Origin: Bacteroidota bacterium
GTDB taxonomy: Bacteria > Bacteroidota > Ignavibacteria > UBA10030 > UBA6906
Direction: 5' to 3'
DNA length: 64,000 bases
Assembly (NCBI GenBank): GCA_019637975.1
Contig: JAHBUR010000004.1
Location: forward strand, 96,209 to 160,208
In this document: positions 41,313 to 61,420 of the stretch, piece after piece
Layout: the number at the start of each line of letters is the position of its first letter
Numbering within the stretch: the stretch's first letter is position 1
Program-made: the position numbers and the translations under genes
Notes under the pieces: model-generated
Seen by the model: the letters and a program-made list of their open reading frames with translations, nothing else
The model's database searches: none
What the model was told of the DNA's origin: nothing

Positions 41313-41321
41313 CTGATCACC

Positions 41322-42479: not shown

Positions 42480-42532
42480 CGTAATAACTCCTTCCGTTTC
42501 GAGCGTGTGCCTGCAGGGAAACCGTTCCCCTT

Positions 42533-42856: not shown

Positions 42857-42962
42857 TTCCGAGGACACATGATTGGACAGTGAATGACAGAGTATGCACA
42901 AGAAGTGAAGCTGCGCCTTCCTAAATCTGGGAAGAACGCCGCGCCCGTTCCTAAAAATGAAA

Positions 42963-42992
42963 TGTCCCGTCTGCCGGAAGGCAAACGGGACA
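42963..42992 (-). terminator. Intrinsic terminator after the 9-heme cytochrome gene
   Basis: An 8-bp perfect outer stem (TGTCCCGT / ACGGGACA), an inner TGCC/GGCA pair and a small loop, 26 bases past the stop at 43018. On the minus strand it is followed by TTTCATTTTT. Confidence 0.8.
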
Positions 42993-43017
42993 TTCACGTC
43001 ATCCACTATGCTGCGGA

Positions 43018-44094
43018 TCAATAGTCGATCTCAGCGCCGCCGATATTGAGCTTGCCGTTTATGTGTTTGGAGGGATTGATGATCTGTGTGTTGGCATTGA
43101 CTACATCGCCATGGCAATTCGCGCATGTCCATCCCTGCGGAATAGGAGGATGTGACCCGCCTTCAGCCGCCGTTTTCGGAAGGGCGCGCAACATCAACGT
43201 CGGGCGGGATACATCGCCGTGACATGTGCCGCATGCCATCTGACTTCCACTCGGATCGTTCCACACGGGGGCAAACTCAGGATTCCCATTCTTGAAGTTC
43301 CCGTGACAATACGTTGACGAGCATTTCAACGTAATCGGGTCGTACACCGGGTTCGGTGTGAACAAGGGAAGATTCGGGCTGTAGTTCGGAGTCCCGGGCT
43401 TGTTCGTGACTGTACGGGTGAGTGTGTTATTCATAATCACTTCAGCACCGGGAGTTTGATCGATATGACCCGGAGCATACGTCGGCCCCGGAACCGCATG
43501 GCACTCGTTGCAGAGAATAGGGAATGCCAGCGAACTTCCCAGAAAATGAATCTGATGGGCACCGACTCCGCGTGCAGTCCGCGCCGTGTTGCCGCTGAGA
43601 TCACGCGGCGGTGCAGGATTCGTTGTGCCATGACACGTTACGCAATTTTCCGGTCCTCCGGGTTGATTATGGCACGTTCTGCAAGACGAAGGCACTGTAC
43701 CGCCGGCGTAACTTGCCCCGTGGCAAGTCTGACACGGACGCATATCCCAGTTGTTCGCTGCAATTGCCTTGCCGTGAAAGTTGGGAGATGACGGATCTTC
43801 AAATCCGCGGCCGTGAATATTCGCCCCCGTCGCGTTATGACAGGTGATGCAGGAAACCTGCGAGCTGCCGCCGTTATAATCCTGCCCGTGACACACAAAG
43901 CACGACGCAACGGTCGCGCTGCCGGTTTTAAGAACCGTGCCGTGGAAATTCGTCGACGCCGTGTCGAGCCAGCTGTCGAGGTGAACCTGCGTTCCGGGTG
44001 AAACCGGGGGCAGGCCCTCCTTCAGTTCTGTGCAGCCATTCCAGAGAACGGCTGCACCAAAGATGATTGTGAGAAGTACAATTCTCGTTTTCAT
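43018..44094 (-). CDS. Nine-haem CxxxxCH/CxxCH lipoprotein cytochrome c
   Basis: A 358-residue predicted lipoprotein (lipobox LWNGC) with eight CxxCH motifs and one CxxxxCH (KCSSTYCHG), as in the family found in Geobacter surface cytochromes. The first half has closely spaced CHG motifs (CFVCH, CITCH, CQTCH, CRTCH, CVTCH). The ATG at 44094 is chosen because the lipobox follows it directly. It is the last gene of a three-cytochrome unit (12-, 6-, 9-haem), ended by the terminator at 42963-42992. As a lipoprotein with stacked haems it could sit on the outer face of an electron conduit. Confidence 0.85.
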   Translation of the reverse strand: MKTRIVLLTIIFGAAVLWNGCTELKEGLPPVSPGTQVHLDSWLDTASTNFHGTVLKTGSATVASCFVCHGQDYNGGSSQVSCITCHNATGANIHGRGFEDPSSPNFHGKAIAANNWDMRPCQTCHGASYAGGTVPSSCRTCHNQPGGPENCVTCHGTTNPAPPRDLSGNTARTARGVGAHQIHFLGSSLAFPILCNECHAVPGPTYAPGHIDQTPGAEVIMNNTLTRTVTNKPGTPNYSPNLPLFTPNPVYDPITLKCSSTYCHGNFKNGNPEFAPVWNDPSGSQMACGTCHGDVSRPTLMLRALPKTAAEGGSHPPIPQGWTCANCHGDVVNANTQIINPSKHINGKLNIGGAEIDY

Positions 44095-44107
44095 ATTCGT
44101 CACCACG

Positions 44108-45265
44108 TTAAGGTGTTCGCAATGCTTGCAGAGATGAGTTGAGCAATGCCTGTGCATACTTCTTATTGTGCATGCCGCGGCTCATGTCATGTTCAATGAA
44201 GAAGTAGTTGTAGAGAGCCCCGGCTTTGTAGGCAGGGGATATTCGTAACGGGTTACCCCCACTTGCATTGATGCTTCCCGATGCGGTCACCCAATTCCGC
44301 TGGCGCAGCAAAGTGAACAAGGAATGCAGCGAGTCTTCAATTGCCTTTTCGGATGCAAGCAACGTCGCCTTCGTGAACCCGCCCGTTCCGTGGCAGCCGC
44401 TCACGTTACATCCTGCCAGAACGAACAACGTATCTGTTCCTGCTTCCGTTGACGAATACCGGATTTTCATCGTGTGCCCGCCTCCGCGTCCGGCACCGAG
44501 ATCGGGCGGATAGACTTGCGAGGCCATATGGCACGCCACGCAACCTTCTTCCTTGATAGCGGTGTTCAATGTGTGACCGGAATTTTCATACGCCGTTCCC
44601 CGGAACTGGAAGCCTCCTGTGCCCATCAGCATCTGCGCCTGAACACCGTAGTGCGGGTACCATCGCGATGATGTGATGACAATGGTATCGGAAGCAGCAT
44701 ACTTCGAGGTATCGGGCCTCGGACTCAATGAACGGGGCTGGTGGCATTGTGCACACACGTTTCCCTTGCCATAATCAAACGTTGCAGCGGAGTACCCAAC
44801 AATTGTTGAGGCAAGTGTCACCGGATTGGAACTACGGAGAGAGAAGTCACCCCGTGAGTGCGGAGAATGGCAGGCAAAGCATCCGGGTGGGCTGGGGTTG
44901 TTCTTCGGCGCCACGATCTGCGATGCAAAATTGTTCTTCCATCGTTCAATAAAACCCTCGGTCGTGTGACATCCGGCGCAATCGGGGCCGTTGCGTTCCA
45001 GATCGCCGCCGTAGGCATGCAGCGAACGCTCCCATTGATACCGGCGTGCCCACAGGTAATAGGTCGTATCAATATCGGGGTTATGGCATGAACCGCAATT
45101 GATGTTCGGTGCAAATCCTTCGAGGTTCAGAACGCCTGTGGCCCCGTCTTTCCCGTCCTTTCCGTCCTTGCCGTCGGACCCTGCCGGTCCTTCGCAACCG
45201 AAAAGCACAAGCGCAACTGCGACCAGCACTGCAAGCAATGCTAATGGGGTGAATGGTTTTTTCAT
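44108..45265 (-). CDS. Six-haem lipoprotein cytochrome c with collagen-like linker
   Basis: A 385-residue predicted lipoprotein (lipobox LVLFGC). Directly after the lipid Cys comes a collagen-like Gly-X-Y run (GSDGKDGKDGKDGATG), encoded by 9-bp DNA repeats near 45144-45173. Then come five CxxCH (CGSCH, CAGCH, CFACH, CAQCH, CVACH) and one CxxxxCH (CNVSGCH). The C-terminal 100 residues lack haem motifs. AAGGAGA lies 7 bases before the ATG at 45265; the gene begins inside the last bases before the 12-haem stop region, in the same transcript. The linker would hold the haem domain away from the membrane. Confidence 0.84.
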   Translation of the reverse strand: MKKPFTPLALLAVLVAVALVLFGCEGPAGSDGKDGKDGKDGATGVLNLEGFAPNINCGSCHNPDIDTTYYLWARRYQWERSLHAYGGDLERNGPDCAGCHTTEGFIERWKNNFASQIVAPKNNPSPPGCFACHSPHSRGDFSLRSSNPVTLASTIVGYSAATFDYGKGNVCAQCHQPRSLSPRPDTSKYAASDTIVITSSRWYPHYGVQAQMLMGTGGFQFRGTAYENSGHTLNTAIKEEGCVACHMASQVYPPDLGAGRGGGHTMKIRYSSTEAGTDTLFVLAGCNVSGCHGTGGFTKATLLASEKAIEDSLHSLFTLLRQRNWVTASGSINASGGNPLRISPAYKAGALYNYFFIEHDMSRGMHNKKYAQALLNSSLQALRTP

Positions 45266-45336
45266 GACGATGTCTCCTTGTGATTCGAAGTATATTCGAC
45301 TTTGCTTTCTCAACAATCTGTTACTGGAACTACACT

Positions 45337-46419
45337 CTACCGGACCCGGCCATTATCCATATGGCACGTGAGACACGACGGATCTCTTCCGGTTACATCA
45401 TGACAGGTGATACATGTTTCCATATCGCGCCGGGCTTCTTCGGCGTGCAGCCCGCCGCCTGAGCCGCGTCCGAGCGTCGTGAACCCCGGAATGCCATGCG
45501 ATGCAGGTTTAAACCGCAGCTGTGAAATGTTGCCTCCCGTGCTGTGGCATTCTGTGCAGAATGTTTGCACTGAATGGCATGATTGACAATCTGCTTCTCT
45601 CGCTTTTGCATCAATGCCGTGCGTAAAGCGGTAATTCAGATCGTGAACGTTCTGCAATAATGTTTGCCTGGGCGAATCCTTTGTCGAGGTTTTGTGTGAC
45701 GGTTCTGTCGCCAAATCTCTGCCGCGACCGTAGCTGTACGATTTCAATCCCGGATCGAGATGGCATTGCTGGCAGAATGTTTCCTTGTGACACATCTGGC
45801 AATCGGCGTTCAACGCTCCGAGACGCGTCATATCGCGATGGTTTCTCGAGAAATCGGATCGTTCATGGTCGGGAGGAATCAAAGTAACAAAATTCGTGTG
45901 GCAGGCTTCGCAGGTATTCGTGGCCTTCCGGTCGTTGTGGCATGTGTTGCAGGTCGCCATCGAGGGGAAATTCGCCGCCGATACGTTGGCGACGTTTTCC
46001 ACGCCGGCGTGGCACGTGGCGCATTCAACCCCCTCCATCGCAACGTGTGCTTCATGCGAGAAAATCAGGTCCCGTTTCACCTGCGGTGCAGCCTGGAAAT
46101 CACTGGTGTTTTTGTGGCAGTACCCGCATTGAATCATTTCCGGATCGTTTACCTGTTCCTCATGGCAAGTGATACATGCATCATGATTGGCTGCGAGATT
46201 GTCGGATGTGAGTTTGCTGGTTTTCGCGGCCGCGTGGCAGGTTGCGCAATCTTCAATTCCCGCTTCTTTGATGTGGAACTCGTGCGAGAATTTCACCGTC
46301 GGGACTCTGCCCACTTCAGGAGAACTCCCTCCTGCACTCAGCGGAGATTTCTCCGAAAGAACAACAACGCCAAGCCCGACGGCACATGCAACGAGAAGTA
46401 TGATGTATCGGCGTATCAT
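45337..46419 (-). CDS. Twelve-haem periplasmic cytochrome c
   Basis: A 360-residue exported protein (hydrophobic N-terminus YIILLVACAVGLGVVVLS) with twelve CxxCH motifs. The spacing resembles strings of c7-type modules (KFSHEFHI... CATCH, LIFSHEAHVAMEGVECATCH), with distal His residues before each set. Such proteins thread outer-membrane porins (MtrA/OmaB-like) or act as periplasmic carriers. An AAGGGATAAG site precedes the ATG, and a strong terminator lies between it and the porin gene upstream, so it is either a separate transcript or read through at low level. Confidence 0.85.
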   Translation of the reverse strand: MIRRYIILLVACAVGLGVVVLSEKSPLSAGGSSPEVGRVPTVKFSHEFHIKEAGIEDCATCHAAAKTSKLTSDNLAANHDACITCHEEQVNDPEMIQCGYCHKNTSDFQAAPQVKRDLIFSHEAHVAMEGVECATCHAGVENVANVSAANFPSMATCNTCHNDRKATNTCEACHTNFVTLIPPDHERSDFSRNHRDMTRLGALNADCQMCHKETFCQQCHLDPGLKSYSYGRGRDLATEPSHKTSTKDSPRQTLLQNVHDLNYRFTHGIDAKAREADCQSCHSVQTFCTECHSTGGNISQLRFKPASHGIPGFTTLGRGSGGGLHAEEARRDMETCITCHDVTGRDPSCLTCHMDNGRVR

Positions 46420-46453
46420 AATCTTATCCCTTTACTTGGAAACTCAACCATAG

Positions 46454-46493
46454 AAAAAATCGCGTCTGCCTCCATGGTTACATGGAGGCAGAC
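46454..46493 (-). terminator. Strong intrinsic terminator after the porin gene
   Basis: A perfect 13-bp stem (GTCTGCCTCCATG / CATGGAGGCAGAC) with a 4-base loop. On the minus strand it is followed by GCGATTTTTTC. It lies 147 bases after the porin stop and 35 bases before the 12-haem gene. Confidence 0.85.
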
Positions 46494-46639
46494 AGGAAAA
46501 AGACACTCAGCCAACGGCTGTTCCGCATGCCGTGCAACGTCAGGCGGATAATTCGCCACAAAGTTGTATTGCGGGTTATTTCTCTCAGTGTTCATGCAGA
46601 GTTCTTTGCGCGTCATTTGTGTCTTTGATTCACAGCCTA

Positions 46640-47926
46640 TCAGAACTGCGTTGTAAACCAGTAGTTGACCTTTCCAAAAACACGGATGTCACTACGGACA
46701 ATTTTGTTCTGCAGCCACTGTCCCTGCAGGTCGAACGAAAGCTGCGACATGGGACGAAACGTTGCGCCGAGAGTTGTTGCAATGCCCTCTTCACGCTTTG
46801 CGTACTTGTCCAGTTTGTACGTGATGTACGCAACCCCCAGCGAGGGGACGAACATATTGTCGAAGAAGGGGTACGTTGCCTGGATGCTTGCATTATCCTG
46901 CTCGCCGGCATACCCTGTTGTACCGCGATACGACAATCCGATGTAGCGGTGGACAAGGCCCACCGTATAGCGGAAACCCTTGTCGTCGGAGTACTTCACG
47001 TACGCGCCGCGGGCAAACGCCCGCACGTCGGGGAACATGATGTAATCGGCGCCGAGCTCAAATTCATCCACCGACTTCAAATCGAACAGCGAGAAGAACG
47101 AATTGTACATCACCCGCGGCTCACGACGAATGAAGTCGCCGCTGACACTCAGGTCATCGAACAAGCCAAGCCGGATACCCAACTGGCCGCGCTGCATTTT
47201 CTTGAAATTCAAATCATAATCATACCTGCCGTACACACGGGAAGCGCCGAACCGGTACGACACATCGCCGCTGACGTATTGTTCCTTTTCTGTTTCGGGC
47301 ATGACATAGACAAGAAAGGGATTGAACAGCGAGTCGGCACGGGAGGCCCAATATCCGATTCGCTCACGATTGCGGTTGATATAGCTGATGCCTACGCGTG
47401 CATTCTCGATTGCATTCACGAGGAACTGGCCGCCAACGGTAAAATTGTTTTTCAACTTCTTCCACTCGCGCAATTCGTACTCAACCGGAGTCGTTTGACC
47501 GCCGTAGGCTGTAAACCGGAATTTATTTTCCGCAAAACGGAGTGTCAGCAATCCGCCATCGATGGTCCCATTGCCCACACCGGCAAAATACGGAACACGT
47601 CCGAACGAAAGATCAGCAGTGTTGAAAATATTCTTCCACTGTCCGTACACATAGTAAAAGCGATAGTCGGGACGTTCATCGAGCGTCTTCTGCAACATTC
47701 CCGATACTTGGAAGTGCGTGTGAATACTGAAGTCGGAGAACGCCGCATCGAGAATCGCGGACTGGAACCCGCGCACAAATCTCTTCGAGACATCGACCGT
47801 ATCGTACTTCTCGTACGTGTAGAACGAGCCGATTAAGCGACCGTTGATGACCTGCGCCGGGGCACTCGCTTGAACCAGGAACGAAATAAGTGCGAAAGAA
47901 AGAACGAAAGGAGTGAACGTTTTCAT
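46640..47926 (-). CDS. Outer-membrane porin-like beta-barrel
   Basis: A 428-residue exported protein with a signal peptide (ending QASAPAQ) and repeated amphipathic strands (RFYYVYGQWKNIF, NNFTVGGQFLVNAIENARVG, ELGADYIMFPDVRAFARGAY). It ends in aromatic residues (FGKVNYWFTTQF), so it is a barrel of roughly 18-22 strands. Adjacent multiheme cytochrome genes make it a candidate for the porin of an extracellular electron conduit, like MtrB/OmbB, although no sequence motif proves this. The start at 47926 is supported by the signal peptide. A sigma-54-like promoter (47969-47984) lies 43 bases upstream. Confidence 0.72.
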   Translation of the reverse strand: MKTFTPFVLSFALISFLVQASAPAQVINGRLIGSFYTYEKYDTVDVSKRFVRGFQSAILDAAFSDFSIHTHFQVSGMLQKTLDERPDYRFYYVYGQWKNIFNTADLSFGRVPYFAGVGNGTIDGGLLTLRFAENKFRFTAYGGQTTPVEYELREWKKLKNNFTVGGQFLVNAIENARVGISYINRNRERIGYWASRADSLFNPFLVYVMPETEKEQYVSGDVSYRFGASRVYGRYDYDLNFKKMQRGQLGIRLGLFDDLSVSGDFIRREPRVMYNSFFSLFDLKSVDEFELGADYIMFPDVRAFARGAYVKYSDDKGFRYTVGLVHRYIGLSYRGTTGYAGEQDNASIQATYPFFDNMFVPSLGVAYITYKLDKYAKREEGIATTLGATFRPMSQLSFDLQGQWLQNKIVRSDIRVFGKVNYWFTTQF

Positions 47927-47968: not shown

Positions 47969-47984
47969 GGCAACCCGTGTGCCA
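47969..47984 (-). promoter_or_regulatory. Sigma-54 promoter before the porin gene
   Basis: On the minus strand: TGGCACACGGGTTGCC. GG and GC are 10 bases apart and both boxes fit the sigma-54 consensus. The expected transcription start is near 47958, 32 bases before the start codon. Confidence 0.68.
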
Positions 47985-48222: not shown

Positions 48223-49686
48223 TCAGAGAACAGTTGCTTTCTGCTGCTTTTTCTCAATGCGTCGAATGGTCAGGTATAATGAAACAACCAAAACTGACAG
48301 AATCAAGGTCGCTATCCCCAAGCCGAAACGACGGAAATAATACTCGTCAACCGCAGCGTGTGCCTCGCCGTGCACTGTTGAGGCAACGGCAAGCCCTTTT
48401 CCGATCACCTCGCTGAACTTCTCGCTGTCAAAAGCATGTACCATCGTCCGTGCTTCCAATCGCGCTTGTCGTGCGTCGCGGAGTTTGTATTTTGCTTCGC
48501 TGATCTCCATCCCTTTTTGCTCGGCTTCATCGACCAGCCGTTGAGCCCGTTGTTCATCCGATTCAAGACTGTCGGCAAGAAGCCGCATCAACGCCGCCGC
48601 TTGAAATCCCTTTGCGTTGTCTTCTTCACTGTGACATCTGCCGCATGTTGCTTCGGGCGCCGTACCAAGAAGCTCATTCGTCGCAGCGACGATTTCATGA
48701 TTGCCGTGACAGGTCTCGCATTCAGGCAGCAGTAGATCATCGAACGCCCTTTTGTGCGGACTCGCGGAGAACAAGTCCGCATTCAACGCATGGCATGTGC
48801 CACACACTTTCGAAATGGACTCGACGCCGGGGGGAGTCGCTGCATGGTTGCCGTGACAACTGTTGCACGCAGGCGCGCCGAGATCGTGCTTTTGCAGCAA
48901 TGCAATGCCGTGCACACTTGAGGAGAATTTCTCAAGCTGGTCAGTCGGAATGCCATACTCCTTCATGTACTCCGCGTTGCTGTGGCATGAGCCGCATGTT
49001 GCCGGCAGGTTTGTCGCGTACACTTTCGACTTCAGGTCCTTTGCCGAGCGGATGTCATGCGCGCCATGACAGCTTGCGCATTCCGCCACTTTTGCATCCC
49101 CCTTCGCGTTGCGCATGCCGTGGATACTTGTTCTATATTTCTCCATCTGATCGACAGGCAACGACGGGTTGTACGACCGCATATAAACGGCATTGGAATG
49201 ACACGTTGCGCATGTCTTCACTACATGCAACGGGTGCACGGGAGAAGCAGGGTTCTTCGCCGACACTATGCCGTGCGCGCCATGGCATGTTGTACATTGC
49301 GCGATATGTTCCTTTCCCGTCACGGCTAATTTACCGTGAACGCTTGTCTGCAAGAACTTCCATTGGTTTACAGGCAGTGCCGAGCCGAATGATTTCATCG
49401 TTGCTTCATCCGCATGACATTTCGCGCACGCTTCGGAAATCGCATCGCCCTTCGGTATGCCGATGAACCCGGCGGCTTTGCTCATTGCGCGTTCCATGTC
49501 GTCAGATTTGGGGTTTCCGCCGTGGCAATCCGCACACGAGATTCCCTTTGAGGCGTGAATATCCTTCTTGAACAGTTGCGTCGGCTTGTCTCCCAACAAT
49601 TGATGGCACTTCACACATTCATCCGCTCCGTGCGAGTAGCCTGCACACACAACCAGCAACACCGATATTGCAGCGAGTTGTTTCAT
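48223..49686 (-). CDS. Eleven-haem membrane-anchored cytochrome c
   Basis: A 487-residue exported cytochrome: a signal peptide, eleven CxxCH motifs (CVKCH through CGRCH) up to about residue 350, an alpha-helical region rich in Glu/Arg/Ala, and one C-terminal membrane helix ([19 protein letters not shown]) with a basic tail. SVHG and SIHGMRN repeats place distal histidines near haems. Its ATG overlaps the cytochrome b stop in an ATGA. It is the last gene of the nine-gene run, with cytochrome b and Rieske just upstream, and probably takes electrons from that complex into the periplasm. Confidence 0.86.
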
Positions 49687-50762
49687 AGCAGCCACCCGAG
49701 AATAGTGAGAATAATGATGTACCCGACTACAAATATTCCGATGTATGTAATGGTCCGGTTCTGCTCGCCGCGGGCGCTTTTTCTGTCCCAGAAAGGAACC
49801 AGCATCCAGAGCAAGCCCGCAATCCCGAATGTCACTATCCCAAGTACTTCTCCGTCAATGAACCAGACGTGCGCAGGGATCATCTTGAGTGTCTGGAACA
49901 TGAACAGGAAATACCATTCGGGCAGAATTCCCGCCGGAGCGGGAGCAAACGGGTCGGCCTTCTGCCCCAATTCCCACGGAAAGAACACCGCAAGAATCGC
50001 CAGAATATTCAACACAATGAGCCAAAGAAGAAGATCTCTGAGCAGGAAATTGGGAAAGAACGGCATCGTCGTTTGTGTTGCCGCGGCTCCACTCTCCGCT
50101 CCAATCGGCTCGCTCATGCCTTGTCGTTGAACAAGCAGCAGGTGAATCCCCAACAGCACGGTAAAAATTCCCGGAAAGACTGCAACATGAAAACCGAAGA
50201 ACCGTGAGAGTGTCGCTCCGGTTACATCTTCTCCTCCCCGAAGGAAGATCATAATCGGTTTGCCGATTACCGGTACTACGCCCGCGATATCGGTGCCGAC
50301 TTTGGTTGCGAAGAAGGCGAGTTCATTCCACGGAAGCAGGTAGCCGCTGAATCCGAAGCCGAGACCGAGAAACAGCATCAGCATCCCGGTAAGCCACGTG
50401 AGTTCACGCGGTTTCCGATATGCCCTCTCGAAGAAAACGCTGAACATATGAACCATCGCCGCAAGGATAAACAGGTTTGCAGCCCAGCTGTGAATCGAGC
50501 GAATCAGCCAACCAAACTGCACTTTCGACATGATGAACTGAATGCTCTCGAAAGCAAGTTCTTCCCCGCTTTTGTAGTACAGGAGGAGAAGAATTCCTGT
50601 CACAACCTGGATGAGAAAAAGAAACAGCGTGATACCGCCAAAATAATACCACACGGAATGCCGGTGCACGGGAACATATTTCTTTCCCATGAAATGGACG
50701 AGGTCTTCGAGCTGTACACGCTCATCAACCCATGCATAGAGTTTTGTCAGGAAGGTTTTCAT
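49683..50762 (-). CDS. Cytochrome b of a bc-type quinol oxidoreductase
   Basis: A 359-residue cytochrome b with about eight membrane helices, the b6 and subunit-IV parts fused. The bis-His haem-b helices are [23 protein letters not shown] and [43 protein letters not shown] and the PEWYFLF motif of the quinol site are present. It oxidises quinol (usually menaquinol) together with the Rieske protein encoded upstream, which it overlaps by 4 bases. The 11-haem gene overlapping its end replaces cytochrome c1. Confidence 0.93.
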
Positions 50763-51214
50763 GATTTCTTCGAGATGAGAACCTCCTCTCCTTGCAGCAC
50801 AACCCGGTATTCATCAAGAGGTCGAGGCGGCGGGCCGGCTATATTACGGCCGTTGAAATCATACTTGCCGTTGTGGCACGCACACCAGATAACGCCCATC
50901 TCCTTGTGGTACTGCACCGTACAATCGAGATGGGTGCATGTTGCATCGAACGCACGGAGTTCACCGGCGGCCGAGCGGACGAGAATAACAGGCTTATTGC
51001 CGAACCGGACGATCATGCCGCTGTCTTTTTCAATCGAGGACAGTGTGCCGACTTTAACGCTTGTTACTTCAACTTCGGCTTGCTTGGGTGGTTTGAGATA
51101 TGCAAAGAGCGGATAGAGAATCGAGGCAGCCCATGCGACGAGGCTGCCGCCGAGAATGAGTTTCAGAAAATCACGTTTCCCGGGTTGTACGTGATCGTCG
51201 GGATCGCTGGTCAT
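50759..51214 (-). CDS. Rieske [2Fe-2S] protein
   Basis: A 151-residue Rieske protein. A membrane anchor ([20 protein letters not shown]) follows a short N-terminus, then come the cluster-binding motifs CTHLDC and CACHNG with an [13 protein letters not shown] stretch after. It takes electrons from quinol at the cytochrome b site. It shares a 4-base overlap with cytochrome b downstream. The gap to the NapC-like gene (51215-51328) is short and holds no other gene. Confidence 0.94.
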
Positions 51215-51328: not shown

Positions 51329-52825
51329 CTATTGCCCGGAATGGCAATCCCGGCACAACGTTTCCTTCCAGGTATCGCCTATGTCTTCGGGATGCTCGAA
51401 CTCAAGTCCCGCAATGTTCAGTGTTGTCGGAACGGGGGCGGTACCCTGATAGAGAATTGTGTGGCATGTGTTGCAATCGCTGGAGATTGTTTTTCCTCCG
51501 GGACTCACATGCTTGCCTCCGTGGCAACGGAAGCAGCCGATGTTCGTCATGTGATCGACATTGTTGGGATATGCTTTCCAACTCACTTTCATGCGGGGAA
51601 AGAAATTGCGACTGTACTGCAACTTCAATTCCTCGGAAGCAAGCCGGATCACTTCTTCTTTCTCGCTTGCTACAGAGGGATAGTTGTCGCGGTAATATTC
51701 GCGTAACAACAGCGGAATACTGTCCATCGCCGCAGCGGTTGATGAGTAGGGCTGTACGAGAGCATTAACAGACGTTGCGCGCACGTTCGGTAATTCCGTA
51801 CTGATACGCCCCAACGTCATGCTCTGGTCGACAATGCGGACGGGAGGCCTGTAGATGTGTGACGGCCGGTTGTGGCAATCGATGCAATCCATCTTGTTCT
51901 TCGGTAGCTTCGCCAGCTCTTCTTCAGAAATATTTTCCTCAGTGGAGAAGTACTCAGTTACCTCACCCGTGTTCTTGTTCATCATGCGCACCCACGGAAT
52001 TACCTGCCTCTGGCTGTCGGTTGCAGCGTACGTCACCTCGTTGGCAATATTCATATGCCAGTGAATACCGCTCGTGGGGCCCCGGTCGGTGCTGCCGCCG
52101 CCGGTTTTCATCAGCAAGGCGATCGTCCAGCGCGTGTTTTCCTCGTCCGATTTGAAGTATGTATTCACGTACTTCTTCTCGCCTGCAAAATGCGACGGCC
52201 AGTGACATTGTTCGCACGTCTCTTGAGCGGGTCGCAAATTCGCAATCGGTGTAGGAATCGGGCGGGGATAGTTATTTACTGCAACAGCGTACACCTGGTA
52301 CGCCCCCGACAATTTCGATCTTACATACCAACCGGCACCCGAACCGACATGGCAGTCGACACATTTTACGCGGGCATGAGGCGAGTTCTGGTACGCAACA
52401 AACTCGGGCTCCATTACAGAGTGGCACGCCTCTCCGCAGAATTCCGTTGACTCGGTCCACTCGAATGACCGGTAACTTCCGTATGCCGTAAACAGCAGAA
52501 AGAGAACCGTCCCGGCTGAGAACACTGTAATCGCCGAGCGCTGTCGCGGGTTGTTCAGATCGACCAGGAATGACATACGACTCGCCGGAAGGCCCTTGGC
52601 GCGTCGGCGTTTTTCCCGCCATATTCCCAAGGGGATAAGAACGAGCCCGAGAACAAGCGGAATCGGCAGCATCACATACGAAATAATGCCGATGTATGCC
52701 GGGGCATGCTCCTGAAACACTTCAATGAACGTGAGAAAGAGGATGGTTGCAAAGCTGGCAACCGCAAGCGCCGTCCCGGTTATGGTTATCGGGTTATAAA
52801 AACTATCGGGCAGTTTTCGTTTCAT
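51329..52825 (-). CDS. NapC/ImcH-like heptahaem membrane cytochrome c
   Basis: A 498-residue inner-membrane cytochrome. Three N-terminal helices (around ITGTALAVASFATILFLTF, YVMLPIPLVLGLVLIPLGI, TVFSAGTVLFLLFTAYGSY) precede a NapC-like domain. Seven haem motifs follow: one CxxxCH (CGEACHSVMEPE, the NapC-type first site), then CVDCH, CEQCH, CIDCH, CFRCH, CNTCH and CRDCH. The combination of three helices and seven haems resembles Geobacter ImcH, which passes quinol electrons to the periplasm for extracellular acceptors. The start at 52825 is set by the first helix; the ribosome site is weak. Confidence 0.85.
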   Translation of the reverse strand: MKRKLPDSFYNPITITGTALAVASFATILFLTFIEVFQEHAPAYIGIISYVMLPIPLVLGLVLIPLGIWREKRRRAKGLPASRMSFLVDLNNPRQRSAITVFSAGTVLFLLFTAYGSYRSFEWTESTEFCGEACHSVMEPEFVAYQNSPHARVKCVDCHVGSGAGWYVRSKLSGAYQVYAVAVNNYPRPIPTPIANLRPAQETCEQCHWPSHFAGEKKYVNTYFKSDEENTRWTIALLMKTGGGSTDRGPTSGIHWHMNIANEVTYAATDSQRQVIPWVRMMNKNTGEVTEYFSTEENISEEELAKLPKNKMDCIDCHNRPSHIYRPPVRIVDQSMTLGRISTELPNVRATSVNALVQPYSSTAAAMDSIPLLLREYYRDNYPSVASEKEEVIRLASEELKLQYSRNFFPRMKVSWKAYPNNVDHMTNIGCFRCHGGKHVSPGGKTISSDCNTCHTILYQGTAPVPTTLNIAGLEFEHPEDIGDTWKETLCRDCHSGQ

Positions 52826-52938
52826 GTGGATTGTTGGATTGGGAAGTGTCGGGAAAATATTCCCATTGCATATAGCGCGAAGAGTCTGAATAAATGGGTT
52901 TTTCCAGACCCTTCGCACGATCGGAGATTATGATAATT

Positions 52939-53472
52939 CTATTTCTTGGTTGCGTGGGCGATCTTGGCCCATTCTGTATCGAACTTGAAGCCCTTGAACG
53001 TCGGGCTTTCGGAGTTGTGGCATGTGATACAGGCTTTTTCGTTCTTCTCGGCCACAATCAAGCCGGCTTCCTTCGATTTTGCCAGGTCGCCTTTGCTGTG
53101 AAGCATCTTGTACGCCGATGCCGCGCCGTGGCACGATTCGCATGTCACGCCTTCTTCCTTTTTGAAGCTGGCTTCAACGTTCTTCGCCATACCGCCGCCG
53201 GTCACGTGGCATTTCAAGCATTCGGGTGCCTCGTGCGGGGCTGCTTTCAGGCCTTTGTCTTTGGCGATCTTCTTCGACTCTTCGCTCAGAAGCGTTTTGT
53301 ATGCGTTTGCGTGGGCGCTTTTCTCCCATACGGTGTATGCTGTTCCGCCTTTGCCGCCTTTATGGCACGCGGCGCACATTTTTGCACCGCTGAATTTATT
53401 TTGTGCAAGGCTTGTCCCCATAACCAGAACAAGCATTGCCATACACAGAAATACGAACCGGGTTGTTCTCAT
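52939..53472 (-). CDS. Tetrahaem periplasmic cytochrome c (c554-like)
   Basis: A 177-residue exported protein: signal peptide (FVFLCMAMLVLVMGTSLAQ), then four CxxCH (CAACH, CLKCH, CESCH, CITCH) with distal histidines in SAHANAYKTL and APHEAPECLK. Its layout fits cytochrome c554-like tetrahaem electron carriers. AGGAGG lies 9 bases before the ATG at 53472; the longer frame overlaps the cytochrome b gene. As a small soluble carrier between membrane complexes it would shuttle electrons within the periplasm. Confidence 0.85.
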   Translation of the reverse strand: MRTTRFVFLCMAMLVLVMGTSLAQNKFSGAKMCAACHKGGKGGTAYTVWEKSAHANAYKTLLSEESKKIAKDKGLKAAPHEAPECLKCHVTGGGMAKNVEASFKKEEGVTCESCHGAASAYKMLHSKGDLAKSKEAGLIVAEKNEKACITCHNSESPTFKGFKFDTEWAKIAHATKK

Positions 53473-53591: not shown

Positions 53592-54485
53592 TCACTGGTA
53601 TGCGAACAGCATTGCATAAATAATCCACACAACAATGCTGAATCCGATCGTGAGTGCAGTCCAACCGAATACGCGTATAGCTCTGATGACAATCGGCGGA
53701 TACGGTTCGACCAGATGTTTCTCCAACTCGCCGCTTTCTACAAGAGCTTCGTATTCCAGCGGCTTATCGCGCTTGAATTCTTCAAAATCCATCCGGCCGC
53801 TGAACACACAAATATCCATCGGGAATTTTTCCGGACGCAGGTGCGTGTTGAAGAAATGCACGGTGAAGATGAAACCGACCGCGAGCAAGGCTTCATCGCT
53901 GTGAATTATAGTGGCGACATTCAATACCTGCCCGGGCATGAATCGTGTAAAAAACTCTGAAAACCATAACATAAACCCGGTTGAGCCGATTACAAAGATT
54001 CCCCAAAACACGGCGAAGTAGTCGAACTTCTCCCAATATGTCCATCGCCCGTACTTCGGGCGCGGCCCTTTGCCAAGAAACCATTTAATGTTGCCGACGA
54101 AATCCTGCCAATCTTTTTTATTAAAGAGCATGGAATCCGGGCCAAAGAGAAGAGCTTTCCAGGATCCAAATTCTTTTCGTCTTCTCTGAACAAGATTCGT
54201 GATGTGGGCTACAAAAATCCCTACCATCAACACCGCGGCGAACCGGTGAATGTACCCCGCAGACTCAAAGCCGCCAAAGAATTTCCCCAAAATCACAGCC
54301 CAGCCCGTGTACGAGAATTTCAGAGTCATGCCGGTGAGTGCGAGACTCATGAAGCTGACAATCATGATAATATGCAGAGTTCTGTTGAGACGCGAGAAGC
54401 GGAGAAACTGCTTCTCTCCTGCAACAACTTCAACAATTGCTGGCTTCGGCGCTACACCCTCTGCTGCATGTGAAGCATTTTCCAT
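53592..54485 (-). CDS. Membrane cytochrome b, CbcL-type domain
   Basis: A 297-residue cytochrome b of the formate-dehydrogenase-gamma/b561-like type with four to five helices. Haem His candidates are in RTLHIIMIVSFMSLALTG, YIHRFAAVLMVGIFVAHIT, NVATIIHSDEALLAVGFIFT and VHFFNTHLRPEKFP. It is paralogous to the C-terminal half of the 13-haem fusion (56520-58709), sharing PK(F/Y)GR(F/W)(S/T)Y and the LWF... strip. It follows the 19-haem gene, so together these may form a split two-gene version of the same fused unit. Confidence 0.88.
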   Translation of the reverse strand: MENASHAAEGVAPKPAIVEVVAGEKQFLRFSRLNRTLHIIMIVSFMSLALTGMTLKFSYTGWAVILGKFFGGFESAGYIHRFAAVLMVGIFVAHITNLVQRRRKEFGSWKALLFGPDSMLFNKKDWQDFVGNIKWFLGKGPRPKYGRWTYWEKFDYFAVFWGIFVIGSTGFMLWFSEFFTRFMPGQVLNVATIIHSDEALLAVGFIFTVHFFNTHLRPEKFPMDICVFSGRMDFEEFKRDKPLEYEALVESGELEKHLVEPYPPIVIRAIRVFGWTALTIGFSIVVWIIYAMLFAYQ

Positions 54486-54509
54486 GGATGAACCGAGGAT
54501 CGTGATTCC

Positions 54510-56516
54510 TTATGATGTTCTACCTTCATCATCGTCTGACTTTTGCTCCTGCGCCGGCAACAGGGGCAGCTTCCCTGCTTTTTCTCTGTTCAATTCGCGA
54601 CGCATTTGCACAGCACGGGGAAGCCAGAGAAGCGTGTGAAGACCCCCGAATATGAACGTGCCTACAAGCAACGAAGTCATCCCCCAGAATGTCCAAAAGA
54701 GAATCGGATACTTTTCGGGGTCGTGGTGTGTCGCATGTGTGAGGTAGCCGGCGAATCTGCGTGTGGCCCCTTCGTGGCATTTCTGACATGTGGCGACGAC
54801 GTTCTCCCGGCTCAAGTGTGATTCAGGATCGGATATTGGAAGAATGTCGTGGGCGCCGTGACAATCATAGCACTTTGCGGTTTTTGTGTAGCCGAGTTGC
54901 GATACTTTGCCATGATATGTGTCGAAATACGTCTTTGCAATATCTTCATGACAGCGGCCGCATTTCGACATGATTTCCAGTTTGAACCCCTGGGCATCAG
55001 CACGTTGGATTGTGTGCGCGCTGTGACAATCGCTGCAAATTGGCAACTGTTTGTCTGTTTGACCGATCTTTTTGAAGTGAATACTCTTTTCGAACTGATC
55101 CTCGATACCGTGGTGGCAGCGACCGCAGGTGGCGGGAACATTCTTCGGATTGACACTTGATGCTGTATCGCTTTTCGGCAAAATGCCGTGGGCAGTATGG
55201 CAGTTTGTGCATGTTGCTGTAACCGTGAGCCCGCTCTTCATCAAGCCTTTACCATGGATACTTTCGGTGTAGTGTGCAATAATATCGTGTTGTTCGCCGG
55301 TGTAGCGAACGGCGGCCTTCTCTCCCTCGCGATGACAGCGTTCACACAAACCGGGAATGTTCGTTGCAAAGATCGGCGAGTTCGGATCAACTTTCCCTTT
55401 AACGGCATGCGTTCCGTGACACTCTTTGCAAGTCGGCCCGTTGGGATCATCCTTCGCAACAAGCCGGCCGTGCATACTGTTCGTAAACTGCTGGCCGACT
55501 TCTTCATGACACGAGGCGCAATCAACTTCTTTCGTAATCGTCTCGCATGGCCGGACGTGTGACGCGTTCACCCCCGAGTGACATTGGCTGCACGCAATTT
55601 TCGAGTGGCGGGAGTGATGCAGATCTTCTTCGCGAGCAAAGAGCGAACGCCCATCTTCGCTTGACTTCAGATCCCGGTTACTGTGGCAACGGAGACAATC
55701 GGCATTCGACATGCCGAGGGAGTAGAAGACCTTTCTGATTTTATGGGGCTGATGGCAATCAACACACGCCGGCAGAATATGTGCCTGTTTCTCCCATAAC
55801 TCACCGCTAATCACCTTGCGGTGCACGGTTTCAATTTGTGCGTGACACTTCGTGCAGGTCGCCGCAATATTTCTGCGCGCAATAGATGAAGCAGGATCGG
55901 TATGCGGCAGAATGGAATGGGCGGTGTGGCAGGTGGCACAATGTGGTGCAACAATGAGGCCTTTCCGCAGCAACCCTTCGCCGTGAATACTCTCGGAGAA
56001 ATTCTCAAGAATATGATCCTGGTGAATTGTACGTTGTTTGGTCACCGGCGTTCCCTCTTGATGGCATTTGCCGCAGAGGTACGGTACTTGCAGGGCCGCT
56101 ACCGGCGAAAGCGGATCCTTCCCCGATACGACATCATGATATCCGTGACAATCCTTGCATTGCGGTGCGAGAGGGTCACCGCGAAGTATTGCTTTGCCGT
56201 GCAAGGATTTGGCGTGCTGCTCCTGTTGCGTATCGTGGCATGTGCCGCACGTAACGATCGCAAGTTCATCCTCGTGCGGAAGTTCTTTCCCTTCAAGATC
56301 CGCGTGACACGAAATGCAGCCGAGTGATCCGTGAACCGAGTTTGCAAACTTCTTTTCGTTAACAAAAACGGAGATCGTCTTCCCTTTCCGTTTTCCAACC
56401 TGTGTTCTTTCCCCGTGACACAAGAAGCAATCACTATTCTCCTGCGCCAACAGCGATGACATACCCGCTGCCAAGCTTACAGCAACGACAAGAAGATGTT
56501 TTGAAAGCTTCTTCAT
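54510..56516 (-). CDS. Nineteen-haem membrane-anchored cytochrome c
   Basis: A 668-residue cytochrome with a signal peptide and nineteen CxxCH motifs spread over residues 30-600, roughly one every 30 residues. The pattern repeats as CxxCH-TAHxILPxxD...CxxCH, which suggests duplication of a two-haem unit. One C-terminal membrane helix (ILFWTFWGMTSLLVGTFIFG) and a basic/acidic tail of about 45 residues end the protein. It is encoded directly before the stand-alone cytochrome b (53592-54485) and after the 13-haem fusion. It probably accepts electrons from quinol via that cytochrome b. Confidence 0.87.
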   Translation of the reverse strand: MKKLSKHLLVVAVSLAAGMSSLLAQENSDCFLCHGERTQVGKRKGKTISVFVNEKKFANSVHGSLGCISCHADLEGKELPHEDELAIVTCGTCHDTQQEQHAKSLHGKAILRGDPLAPQCKDCHGYHDVVSGKDPLSPVAALQVPYLCGKCHQEGTPVTKQRTIHQDHILENFSESIHGEGLLRKGLIVAPHCATCHTAHSILPHTDPASSIARRNIAATCTKCHAQIETVHRKVISGELWEKQAHILPACVDCHQPHKIRKVFYSLGMSNADCLRCHSNRDLKSSEDGRSLFAREEDLHHSRHSKIACSQCHSGVNASHVRPCETITKEVDCASCHEEVGQQFTNSMHGRLVAKDDPNGPTCKECHGTHAVKGKVDPNSPIFATNIPGLCERCHREGEKAAVRYTGEQHDIIAHYTESIHGKGLMKSGLTVTATCTNCHTAHGILPKSDTASSVNPKNVPATCGRCHHGIEDQFEKSIHFKKIGQTDKQLPICSDCHSAHTIQRADAQGFKLEIMSKCGRCHEDIAKTYFDTYHGKVSQLGYTKTAKCYDCHGAHDILPISDPESHLSRENVVATCQKCHEGATRRFAGYLTHATHHDPEKYPILFWTFWGMTSLLVGTFIFGGLHTLLWLPRAVQMRRELNREKAGKLPLLPAQEQKSDDDEGRTS

Positions 56517-56519
56517 GGT

Positions 56520-58709
56520 TCAGGCAGTTGTCTGCTGTTGCTCCTTTTCCTGTTTGGCTCGCTCGGCCAGTTCCGCCGCTTCACGTTTCTTGATTTCTGC
56601 CAGTTCCAGCGGGTGTTCTTCGGCCATCTCTTCTTCCGTCAAAGTACCTTTCCAGAATGCGAGGTTGAGCGGATACGAATCAGGGTTGAAGATGACGAAG
56701 TAGAAATGCCAAACGATAATGGCGAGCGTCGCAAGCCATGCCTCGTAGAAGTGGATTGTGCGTGCAATATCCCAACCCATTTTCGTGAACAGGCCCATGA
56801 ACGTATTGTCAAACCACAGTATCACGCCGGTGACTGCCATAACAACTGTTCCCCAGATCAGCGCCCAATACTCAGCTTTTTCAATGTAGCTGAAACGGCC
56901 GAATTTGGGCTTTTCTTCGGAAAACCGCAGGTAGTATTTCATCATTGCCACCACGTCCAAAATGTCTTGGCGAACCGGCAACAAATCCTGCAGGAGACGT
57001 TTCCCTCGCGGCACGGCGAGAACATAATACACGTGATAGAGACTCACCAGCACAAGCACAACGCCGGCAATGCGGTGCAGCAAACTGCGCAGTTCAAACA
57101 TCCAGGGACTGATGTCACGAACGGGGACTACCCACCACGCATCGGGGTAGCGCAATGCAAAGCCCGTCACAACAAGTATCATGAAGCTGATTGCCAGGGT
57201 AGCATGTTGAATGCGCTCGTTCAGCGACATGCGGAGATACAGCTTGTTGGAATGATGCTCGCGCTCGAGAAGGCCGCGCCGATACATAAGCTGGCGTTTT
57301 GACTTCTTGACAAAATCCAACGCATTGTGAACGAACATCCCACCAATAGTCAAAATGATGAGAGCAATGTAGCCCGTCGCAATGTAGTACAGGATCGCAT
57401 CTTCACCCGAGGTCGCAATAACGTGCACTCTTCCCCTGGTGAAGTTCTCGTTGGCGCCCGGATGGCACGAGCCGCAGGTGTTCACAAGGTTCGAGGGATG
57501 GATGAGGGATGTCGAATCCGTTGATGGTTTGATGTCGTGCACACCGTGGCAGCTCGCACAATTTGCCACCTCGACAGAGCCTCCTCTGCTTGCGAGTCCA
57601 TGATAACTATCTGTAAAACTCTTGAAGCGGTTGGCCGCCAACCCGTACTTCTCTGTCAACTTCAGGGAGGCGTGACACGGTGTACACACTTGTGAAGAAA
57701 CGTTGCGCGGTGCGACGGGGGAGCGGGAATCCTTGGGAGAGAGAATATTATGTTCGCCATGACAATCCGTACAGGTTGCGGAGGCGGTGATGCCCCGCAT
57801 CAACGCTTTGGCGTGAATACTCTCATCGAATTGTGCTTGAATGTCGCCGTGACACTGCCCGCATGTCTCGGCAATATGTTTTTTCGACACTTTGGAATCC
57901 GGATCTGAGCCTTTCTTCATTTCATGGCTGCCATGACAATCGCTGCAGGTTGCGGCTCCTTCATTGCCATGCTGTACAGCCTGTCCGTGAACGCTGTTCT
58001 CGTAGCTTGCAATGAAACCCGCTGAAGGGCCGACCCGCTTTCTCACTTCTTCATCATCCAAATGGCAGCTCAGGCACATCCTTGCTTCCTGTTTGCGGCT
58101 TGTCTTGGCATCCTCGGACGTGGGTGCGACGACTTCATGTTCGCCGTGGCAATCAATACACGTCGGGGCACCTTTGATGGCAGCAGCGAGGGCCTTCCCG
58201 TGATCGGACGCTATGTACTTTGTTGCAACGGACGTGTGACATGTCGCGCAGATTTGTTCTGTAAATGCCTTCTTCTCCGACAAGGGCATCTCGGACAACT
58301 TCCGGATCGAATGCGTAGTGTGGCAATCTGTACATGAGGCGGCGGGCTTCCCCTTTTTCAGCGCGCCGTGAACGCTTTGCTGGTAGTTCGTGAACTTCTC
58401 ATCGGCGTGGCACGATCCGCAATCAACCGGTTTGATGCGTTTGGCGTGCGGCAACTGGTCGGCCTTGAATCCTTCGTGGCAGGAGACGCATCCCAGGTCT
58501 GCGTGGGCCGATTGGTCAAAATGTGCTCCATCGACAAACAGCGAAACGGACTTTCCCTTCCGTTCCATCGTCAACGACTTCTCCGAATGGCAAACAAGGC
58601 AATCTTCTTTGTCCTGAGCCTTGAGGTAGAGTGGATTCCATACGGCTGCTGCCGCAAACAGCAACCCGGCAGTTCTTACACTTCGAAACCAAAGATGTCG
58701 TAAACTCAT
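56520..58709 (-). CDS. Thirteen-haem cytochrome c fused to cytochrome b (CbcL-like)
   Basis: A 729-residue fusion. After a signal peptide come thirteen CxxCH motifs (residues about 35-415), then a helix (YYIATGYIALIILTIGGMFV) and a b-type domain with four helices. The domain's His candidates are in RIQHATLAISFMILVVTGFA, LLHRIAGVVLVLVSLYHVYY and TIHFYEAWLATLAIIVWHFY. The tail is charged (EEEMAEEHPLELAEIKKREA). Geobacter CbcL has the same order with nine haems; it moves quinol electrons to the periplasm at low potential. The gene heads the nine-gene run and has a sigma-54-like promoter (58762-58778). Confidence 0.88.
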   Translation of the reverse strand: MSLRHLWFRSVRTAGLLFAAAAVWNPLYLKAQDKEDCLVCHSEKSLTMERKGKSVSLFVDGAHFDQSAHADLGCVSCHEGFKADQLPHAKRIKPVDCGSCHADEKFTNYQQSVHGALKKGKPAASCTDCHTTHSIRKLSEMPLSEKKAFTEQICATCHTSVATKYIASDHGKALAAAIKGAPTCIDCHGEHEVVAPTSEDAKTSRKQEARMCLSCHLDDEEVRKRVGPSAGFIASYENSVHGQAVQHGNEGAATCSDCHGSHEMKKGSDPDSKVSKKHIAETCGQCHGDIQAQFDESIHAKALMRGITASATCTDCHGEHNILSPKDSRSPVAPRNVSSQVCTPCHASLKLTEKYGLAANRFKSFTDSYHGLASRGGSVEVANCASCHGVHDIKPSTDSTSLIHPSNLVNTCGSCHPGANENFTRGRVHVIATSGEDAILYYIATGYIALIILTIGGMFVHNALDFVKKSKRQLMYRRGLLEREHHSNKLYLRMSLNERIQHATLAISFMILVVTGFALRYPDAWWVVPVRDISPWMFELRSLLHRIAGVVLVLVSLYHVYYVLAVPRGKRLLQDLLPVRQDILDVVAMMKYYLRFSEEKPKFGRFSYIEKAEYWALIWGTVVMAVTGVILWFDNTFMGLFTKMGWDIARTIHFYEAWLATLAIIVWHFYFVIFNPDSYPLNLAFWKGTLTEEEMAEEHPLELAEIKKREAAELAERAKQEKEQQQTTA

Positions 58710-60057: not shown

Positions 60058-61416
60058 TCAACTCTGAGAAGGGATGTTGAGTTCTTCAATCTTTCGATAG
60101 AGTGAAGAGAGGCTGATGTTGAGCGCCTTCGCGAGTTCATCTTTGCTCGGATGAATACGCAACATGTGCCCGATGTACTCGCGTTCAAATTCGGCGACGG
60201 CTTCTTTGAGAGGCTTGTTACCGCCGACTGAAAATGAGCCGGAGGATTGACCGAAAAAGGCCGGAAGTTCTTTCGTCGTGATCATATTGCCTTCGGCGAA
60301 GATCGTCGCCCGCTCGATGATGTTTTCCAACTCGCGGACTTCTCCCTTCCAGTTGTGCGCAAGAAGAAGTTTCATGGCTTCATGGTCAACGCCGCGCACA
60401 TCTTTGTTCATTTCGCTTGCGTACCGTGACACAAAATGCTGGACAAGCAAGGGAATATCATCAATGCGCTCGCTCAGCGGCGGCAGTTCAATACCCACAA
60501 CATTCAACCGGTAGAACAAATCCTCGCGGTATTTTCCGTCCTGAACTGCTTTTTCGAGGTTGCGATTGGTGGAGGCAATAATCCGGACATCGACGGGTAT
60601 TTCATGCGATGTGCCGACGGGGGTCACCTGTTTCATTTCGATGGCACGCAACAGCTTCACCTGTAAATGCAGGGGAATCTCGCTCACTTCGTCGAGGAAG
60701 ATAGTTCCACCGTCGGCGGTTTTGAAGAATCCGACACGATCCATTGAAGCCCCTGTAAAGGCTCCTTTTTTGTGGCCGAACAATTCACTCTCGAACAGGT
60801 TTTCCACAAGGGCCCCGCAGTTCACCGGAATGAACGGCTTCTCCTTTCGCTTGCTGTTATAGTGAACGGCCCGAGCGACAAGTTCTTTTCCGGTTCCGCT
60901 CTTTCCGGTAATCAACACCGTGCCGTCCGTTTGCGCGACCTTCTTGATTGTTTCAAACACCCTCTGCATTGCGGAACTTTTGCCGATGATGTTCTCAAAA
61001 TCATAGTGCCGGTGAATTTCGCTGCGCAGCAATTTATTCTCCAACCGTATCCGGCGGTCGCCTAACAAACGCCTCGTCTTCACCAGCAATTCATCAAACT
61101 CGACCGGTTTCAGCACGTAGTCGATGGCGCCTCTGCGGAGCGCGGCAATGGCACTTTCAATAGAGCCGTATGCGGTAATCACGACAACCATGGTTTCAGG
61201 ACTCAGACGGGAGATGTTCTCCATTAACTCAATCCCCTTCATCTCAGGCATTTCGATGTCGGTGATTACGAGATCGAAGGCGCGTTCTTTGATATACTCG
61301 AGCGCCACTTTGCCGTTCTCGGCTTCCTGAACAGAGTATCCTTCTTTCTTCAGAACAAACGAAAGAGATTCGCGAATGATCTCCTCATCATCAACTATAA
61401 GAATAGACTCTGCCAT
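60058..61416 (-). CDS. NtrC-family sigma-54 activator
   Basis: A 452-residue response regulator with the three NtrC domains. The receiver has the phospho-Asp at residue 53 in LVITDIEMPEMK. The AAA+ domain has GKSGTGKELVARAVHY (Walker A), the sigma-54-contacting GAFTGAS loop, and GGTIFLDEVSEIPL (Walker B). The C-terminus is a Fis-type helix-turn-helix (KDELAKALNISLSSLYRKIE). It needs sigma-54 polymerase; the five TGGCAC-N5-TTG elements in the window are natural targets. It is co-transcribed with the kinase gene at 61421-62833, 4 bases apart. Confidence 0.94.
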   Translation of the reverse strand: MAESILIVDDEEIIRESLSFVLKKEGYSVQEAENGKVALEYIKERAFDLVITDIEMPEMKGIELMENISRLSPETMVVVITAYGSIESAIAALRRGAIDYVLKPVEFDELLVKTRRLLGDRRIRLENKLLRSEIHRHYDFENIIGKSSAMQRVFETIKKVAQTDGTVLITGKSGTGKELVARAVHYNSKRKEKPFIPVNCGALVENLFESELFGHKKGAFTGASMDRVGFFKTADGGTIFLDEVSEIPLHLQVKLLRAIEMKQVTPVGTSHEIPVDVRIIASTNRNLEKAVQDGKYREDLFYRLNVVGIELPPLSERIDDIPLLVQHFVSRYASEMNKDVRGVDHEAMKLLLAHNWKGEVRELENIIERATIFAEGNMITTKELPAFFGQSSGSFSVGGNKPLKEAVAEFEREYIGHMLRIHPSKDELAKALNISLSSLYRKIEELNIPSQS

Positions 61417-61420
61417 GAAC

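What the first reader, a model, noticed from the sequence alone, without database searches (positions are those of the whole stretch)
43018..47926. Candidate outer-membrane electron conduit: barrel plus 12-, 6- and 9-haem cytochromes
A 428-residue porin-like barrel is followed by a periplasmic 12-haem protein and two lipoprotein cytochromes carrying CxxxxCH sites, in the order expected of a porin-cytochrome conduit. The porin has its own sigma-54 promoter and terminator, so the cytochromes may be made at a different level. Nothing in the barrel sequence identifies it as MtrB-like, so it may be an independent type of conduit.
Basis: inference. Interest (0 to 1): 0.6.

Follow-up and report, generated by a model that had tools for sequence, protein, structure and literature searches.

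The report
Ignavibacterial outer-membrane porin-cytochrome electron conduit
Four neighbouring genes very probably build a protein wire, a pore in the outer membrane filled and capped by haem proteins, that carries electrons between the cell and material outside it; it is a well-conserved lineage version of a machine already described in the relative Ignavibacterium album, and the same genes occur in the Fe(III)-respiring Melioribacter roseus.

Summary
On the minus strand there is a 428-aa outer-membrane barrel followed by a 12-haem cytochrome and two lipoprotein cytochromes with 5+1 and 8+1 haem motifs (CxxCH + CxxxxCH). Barrel, 12/14-haem cytochrome and CxxxxCH lipoprotein stay adjacent in every locus examined across the class, and the barrel is in 225 of 369 good class genomes, almost always single copy. 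AlphaFold2 gives 22 strands, no plug and a lumen wide enough for a haem chain. The barrel is not MtrB-like (hhalign probability 12%; MtrAB pairs sit elsewhere in some of the same genomes) and matches no substrate-specific porin by sequence. So the conduit reading is supported. "An independent type" is only partly right: the same layout was published as the pcc cluster of Ignavibacterium album (IALB_1840-1837), and I find it in a held genome with exactly the chromosome length of Melioribacter roseus, an Fe(III) respirer. The window's version has 12 rather than 14 haems, an optional 6-haem lipoprotein with a collagen-like stalk, and a genus-specific terminator after the barrel. Sequence kinship to Geobacter OmbB/ExtB could not be tested. 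Verdict: new member (lineage variant) of the known porin-cytochrome kind.

The parts
46640..47926 (-). 22-stranded outer-membrane beta-barrel (Pcc-type porin), 428 aa, signal peptide ending ..AQ
   Evidence: sequence; signal peptides; AlphaFold2 pLDDT 81, 22 strands; alternating strands with conserved polar lumen face; conservation
45337..46419 (-). 12-haem cytochrome, 360 aa, of repeated c7-like type; predicted trans-barrel / periplasmic wire; orthologues have 12 or 14 haems
   Evidence: the 12 motifs conserved, one row losing a single His; profile hits 3ov0, E 5.6e-25
44108..45265 (-). 6-haem lipoprotein cytochrome (5 CxxCH + 1 CxxxxCH) with a collagen-like Gly-X-Y linker after the lipid Cys; present in only part of the relatives
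   Evidence: weak MtrC similarity E 0.002
43018..44097 (-). 9-haem lipoprotein cytochrome (8 CxxCH + 1 CxxxxCH), GSu_C4xC__C2xCH family; core member of the cassette
   Evidence: TIGR01904 E 4.6e-13 over cut-off; invariant CxxxxCH
47969..47984 (-). sigma-54 (-24/-12) like promoter 42 nt before the barrel start codon
   Evidence: background 0.007 per 300 nt
46463..46494 (-). intrinsic terminator between barrel and 12-haem gene, genus-specific
42960..42995 (-). intrinsic terminator after the 9-haem gene, end of the unit
48223..49689 (-). 11-haem cytochrome with C-terminal membrane helix, likely inner-membrane partner
   Evidence: conserved upstream of the barrel in many loci
49683..50762 (-). cytochrome b (b6/petB type), quinol side
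   Evidence: PF00033 E 5e-49
50759..51214 (-). Rieske iron-sulfur protein (assigned from the sequence read directly: CTHLDC...CxCHxG)
   Evidence: sequence; not scanned against a library
51329..52834 (-). NapC/NirT-like membrane cytochrome with 7 haem motifs (6 CxxCH + 1 CxxxCH)
52939..53469 (-). 4-haem cytochrome c554-like; sits directly before the barrel in many relatives
53592..58709 (-). second redox module: FdhG-like cytochrome b, large multihaem cytochrome (668 aa; 19 motifs in orthologues), multihaem cytochrome fused to cytochrome b561 (729 aa; 13 motifs in orthologues)
60058..62833 (-). PAS histidine kinase and sigma-54-activating response regulator, candidate regulator of the conduit

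Best explanation
The genes encode a porin-cytochrome (Pcc-type) conduit. The 22-strand barrel forms a wide, plugless hole in the outer membrane. The 12-haem cytochrome enters or abuts it from the periplasm as a haem wire, and the 9-haem lipoprotein, with the optional 6-haem lipoprotein on a flexible collagen-like stalk, takes the electrons at the surface and passes them to an extracellular acceptor such as Fe(III) minerals, electrodes or partner cells. Electrons come from quinol through the neighbouring cytochrome b-Rieske / NapC-like / multihaem modules. Shown here: gene content, haem motifs, conserved adjacency, barrel size and lumen conservation by prediction, co-occurrence with quinol-linked modules. 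Inferred: threading, surface exposure of the lipoproteins, direction of flow and the acceptor. It is the lineage form of the published Ignavibacterium album pcc cluster.
For: Conserved barrel, 12/14-haem, CxxxxCH-lipoprotein order across the class and in one distant phylum member, usually with overlapping or near-abutting genes. 22-strand plugless barrel of TonB-receptor barrel size (Z about 20), C-alpha diameter about 40 A against 47 A for 26 strands. Lumen-facing positions more conserved (2.81 vs 2.33 bits) and more charged (24% vs 7%) than lipid-facing ones. A 3,300,414-bp contig, the exact M. roseus chromosome length, carries the cassette; M. roseus respires Fe(III) (PMC3534657). Layout equals IALB_1840-1837 as described in PMC4245776. 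Cytochrome b/Rieske/NapC-like modules adjoin in this window and many relatives.
Against: No protein of this lineage has been shown to move electrons across the outer membrane. The 12-haem protein lacks a clear signal-peptidase site in the window and may be anchored in the inner membrane. Its AlphaFold2 model is unusable (pLDDT 47), so threading could not be tested. Lipoprotein surface exposure is not shown.
Confidence: 0.82

Rival explanations
1. The barrel is an ordinary diffusion or substrate-specific porin that happens to lie beside multihaem cytochromes that work in the periplasm.
For: Foldseek ranks pilus-usher, AlgE and Occ-type barrels highest; weak Pfam Porin_4 hits in 3 of 27 homologues; the barrel has its own promoter-like site and terminator in this genus.
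Against: Adjacency to the 12/14-haem gene holds across the class, 22 strands instead of 16-18, conserved charged lumen, no sequence match to any named porin.
Confidence: 0.08
2. A conduit used inward: electrons from Fe(II), a cathode or a partner cell are taken up and fed to the quinone pool, as in Pio/Mto-type systems.
For: Such conduits can in principle run either way; quinone-linked modules of more than one type adjoin; sequence cannot give direction.
Against: The contig with the M. roseus chromosome length carries the cassette and that isolate respires Fe(III); [quoted passage not shown]
Confidence: 0.1
3. The 12-haem protein is tethered in the inner membrane and bridges the periplasm, and the barrel is filled by one of the lipoprotein cytochromes instead.
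For: Long N-terminal hydrophobic helix without a clear cleavage site in the window, helix 2-23 predicted at high confidence.
Against: Many orthologues have a small-residue Ser/Ala-x-Ala-like site after the helix, compatible with cleavage; by gene order the 12/14-haem gene is the fixed partner of the barrel.
Confidence: 0.15

Closest known systems
pcc cluster of Ignavibacterium album, IALB_1840-1837 (PMC4245776)
   Same: Order periplasmic cytochrome, porin, 14-haem 400-aa cytochrome, outer-membrane cytochrome with atypical motif; held genomes G148/G149 show exactly 4-haem, 421-aa barrel, 400-aa 14-haem, 6+1-haem, and G148's barrel and cytochromes are homologous to the window's (34-50%).
   Different: Window has 12 haems in the middle cytochrome, an extra 6-haem lipoprotein, a cytochrome b-Rieske module directly upstream and a terminator after the barrel. 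The IALB sequences themselves could not be aligned here.
Geobacter Pcc OmbB-OmaB-OmcB and ExtABCD (PMC4245776, PMC6148476)
   Same: Porin + periplasmic multihaem + outer-membrane lipoprotein multihaem; ExtABCD likewise has a 12-haem periplasmic cytochrome and two lipoproteins, one pentahaem; published Pcc porins have 18-22 strands.
   Different: Gene order and lipoprotein haem numbers differ (8/12 for OmaB/OmcB, 12/5/12 for ExtA/C/D); sequence homology could not be tested, no Geobacter sequence was reachable. PMC4245776 calls the I. album porin distantly related to the rest.
MtrCAB / PioAB / MtoAB (MtrB family, TIGR03509)
   Same: Works-like analogy: barrel sheath, haem wire, surface cytochrome.
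   Different: Barrel 22 strands and 428 aa against 26 strands and about 700 aa (Mtr figures from own knowledge); no TIGR03509 hit, hhalign probability 12%, and MtrAB pairs exist separately in some of the same genomes.
12-haem cytochrome with solved structure 3ov0 (GSU1996, name from own knowledge)
   Same: Profile of the 12-haem protein matches it best among solved structures, E 5.6e-25, so it is built of c7-like repeats.
   Different: Local match to repeats (best stretch profile 34-169), not shown over the whole length; 3ov0 is not known to sit in a barrel.

Membership tests
Pcc porin-cytochrome conduit | Adjacent genes for porin-like outer-membrane protein, periplasmic multihaem cytochrome and (mostly) outer-membrane multihaem cytochrome | tested here: met
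Pcc porin-cytochrome conduit | Porin with 18-22 transmembrane strands (PMC4245776) | tested here: met
   22 strands in the AlphaFold2 model
Pcc porin-cytochrome conduit | Periplasmic cytochrome with 5-14 haems (PMC4245776) | tested here: met
   12 haems; periplasmic placement itself predicted only
Pcc porin-cytochrome conduit | Sequence similarity to OmbB/OmaB/OmcB (BLAST E<0.01 in the original definition) | not testable with these tools
   no Geobacter sequence reachable; only literature says Ignavibacterial porins are OmbB-like (PMC7399161)
Pcc porin-cytochrome conduit | Electron transfer across the membrane by the complex | not testable with these tools
   needs proteoliposomes or a deletion
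MtrB/PioB family | Match to TIGR03509 / profile similarity to MtrB homologues | tested here: not met
   no hit in 27 members at E<=1; hhalign probability 12% against six class proteins found with TIGR03509
MtrA / DmsE decahaem family | Match of the 12-haem protein to TIGR03508 over cut-off | tested here: not met
   15.3 bits against cut-off 192.2
GSu_C4xC__C2xCH cytochromes | TIGR01904 over curated cut-off | tested here: met
   48.7 bits against 27 for the 9-haem protein
Substrate-specific porins | Sequence match to a curated porin family | tested here: not met
   window protein no hit; only scattered weak hits in homologues
TonB-dependent receptor | N-terminal plug domain inside a 22-strand barrel | tested here: not met
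   mature chain begins with strand 1, no plug; only the barrel size is shared

The most novel reading that the evidence does not exclude
The barrel is an evolutionarily separate 22-strand sheath family, unrelated by descent to OmbB, ExtB and MtrB, that forms a core cassette (4-haem, barrel, 12/14-haem, CxxxxCH lipoprotein) into which different quinone-side modules are plugged across the Ignavibacteria branch of Bacteroidota.
Probability: 0.35. Interest if true: 0.45.

Novelty: new member of a known kind. Interest (0 to 1): 0.3.

Why it matters
It shows that one conduit cassette is a core trait of a large, mostly uncultured class (225 of 369 good genomes, 115 of 182 genera), and that the cassette is fixed while its inner-membrane partners vary. 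The barrel's sequence profile gives a marker for this conduit that Pfam, NCBIfam and the MtrB model miss, and M. roseus is a cultured Fe(III)-respiring isolate in which to test it.

Tried and rejected
Barrel against Pfam, NCBIfam and the PDB by sequence and profile: nothing convincing. MtrB family in the own genome: none, but its control genomes were silent too; the class-wide search then found it in a few relatives. AlphaFold2 of the 12-haem protein failed (pLDDT 47), so no fold search was made with it. MtrB did not appear among the 50 listed VIA-align rows, which is not evidence of a different fold. I considered G148/G149 as I. album, but could not confirm it: their contigs are 3,665,746 and 3,737,057 bp, and the I. 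album length I recall (3,658,997 bp, own memory) fits neither.
Full report
What is there. The five-kilobase stretch is read from right to left. It holds a 428-residue protein without cysteines (47926-46640), a 360-residue protein with 12 CxxCH motifs (46419-45337), a 385-residue lipoprotein with 5 CxxCH + 1 CxxxxCH (45265-44108) and a 359-residue lipoprotein with 8 CxxCH + 1 CxxxxCH (44097-43018), 27 haem motifs in all. The atypical sites are probably real: that of the 9-haem protein is invariant in 13 homologues, and at homologous positions CxxCH and CxxxxCH replace each other. The 9-haem protein passes the TIGR01904 cut-off.

The barrel. It matches nothing in Pfam, NCBIfam or the PDB by sequence (the 27-member family gives only scattered weak hits). 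AlphaFold2 with 19 sequences gives pLDDT 81 and 22 strands covering the whole mature chain, without a plug (the strand count is mine from the listed elements, leaving out two short ones). Structural alignment finds the barrels of 22-strand TonB-dependent receptors best, Z about 20 over about 350 residues. Positions on the polar side of the strands are more conserved (2.81 against 2.33 bits) and more charged (24% against 7%) than those on the other side, as expected of a barrel that holds a fixed partner; no control set of ordinary porins was run.

Conservation. The barrel occurs in 89 of 120 near relatives and in 225 of 369 good genomes of the class (115 of 182 genera), nearly always once. Outside the class one genome in the phylum sample had it, again with 4-haem, 12-haem and CxxxxCH-lipoprotein genes alongside. 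In 20 of 20 loci of one sample and 20 of 20 of a second (one genome is in both), and in the named loci with enough sequence, the barrel is followed by the 12- or 14-haem gene (a few have 11) and then the CxxxxCH lipoprotein. The 6-haem lipoprotein is optional. What lies upstream varies: cytochrome b, Rieske, NapC-like and 11-haem membrane cytochromes as in this window; a cytochrome b561 fused to a multihaem part; or neither. This suggests a fixed outer-membrane cassette with exchangeable inner-membrane inputs (inference).

Regulation. The 217-nt gap with terminator between barrel and 12-haem gene is found in the window and its nearest relatives only (188-218 nt; the stem itself is conserved in L051 but not visible in L052); elsewhere the gap is -4 to 70 nt. 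A sigma-54-like site lies before the barrel in the window and in CHB1 and in two more-distant loci, against a background of 0.007 per 300 nt. A histidine kinase and a sigma-54 activator are encoded upstream. Separate control of the porin is therefore plausible for this genus, not a general property.

Comparison with known systems. Membership of the MtrB family fails: none of 27 homologues hits TIGR03509, and the profile comparison with six proteins found by TIGR03509 in the class gives 12% probability. A genus mate (G002) carries an MtrAB-like pair at another locus, and one genome carries such a pair just upstream of the cassette. The 12-haem protein is not of the MtrA/DmsE family (TIGR03508, 15 bits against a cut-off of 192) but of c7-repeat type, nearest 3ov0. 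The architecture equals the pcc cluster described for Ignavibacterium album: IALB_1840 periplasmic cytochrome, 1839 porin, 1838 with 400 residues and 14 motifs, 1837 outer-membrane cytochrome with an atypical motif (PMC4245776). Two held genomes show 4-haem, 421-aa barrel, 400-aa 14-haem and 6+1-haem proteins in that order. A single held contig of 3,300,414 bp has the chromosome length published for Melioribacter roseus and carries the cassette, with barrel 35%, 14-haem 38% and 9-haem 37% identical to the window's. M. roseus uses Fe(III) as an electron acceptor (PMC3534657). PMC7399161 calls the Ignavibacterial porins OmbB-like. Kinship to OmbB or ExtB could not be tested.

Mechanism. Quinol is oxidised by the cytochrome b-Rieske and NapC-like modules; electrons pass over periplasmic multihaem proteins to the 12-haem wire, through the barrel, to the 9- and 6-haem lipoproteins and out. 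Content, order and barrel size are shown or predicted; threading, surface exposure, direction and acceptor are inferred. The main open point is the N-terminus of the 12-haem protein, which lacks a clear cleavage site in the window and may be a membrane anchor.

Verdict. A real and well-conserved electron conduit by strong inference; a new member, with lineage-specific changes, of a kind described in 2014.

Noticed in passing
window 45265-45130 (6-haem lipoprotein N-terminus) and orthologues: A collagen-like Gly-X-Y stretch follows the lipid-bearing cysteine of the 6-haem cytochrome in nearly all orthologues, as if the haem domain stood on a flexible stalk.
   Followed up: partly
window 44097-43960 and orthologues: Most 9-haem lipoproteins share C-[ST]-[DE/K]-L-K right after the lipidated cysteine, which could be a surface-export signal as known for Bacteroidota lipoproteins (own knowledge).
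   Followed up: no
L128:3777-7223 (G002) and L126:592-3995 (G046): MtrA-like and MtrB-like pairs occur in a few class members, once directly upstream of the barrel cassette, so two conduit types coexist.
   Followed up: partly
L031 / L052 (G002 barrel): The barrel gene of the genus mate G002 carries an in-frame TAG, splitting it into 329- and 75-codon open frames; pseudogene or assembly error not distinguished.
   Followed up: no
window 38333-42536: A TonB-like gene, a CcmF-like cytochrome c assembly gene and a small ferredoxin follow the conduit; CcmF and ferredoxin keep this place in many relatives.
   Followed up: partly
window 58912-59863: A universal-stress-like protein and a small receiver-like protein lie between the sigma-54 regulator pair and the multihaem genes (read by eye, not scanned).
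   Followed up: no
L108 (G508, other family of the phylum): A distant barrel relative (E 1e-16) sits in a full cassette with 4-, 12- and 8+3-haem cytochromes, so the cassette reaches beyond the class.
   Followed up: partly
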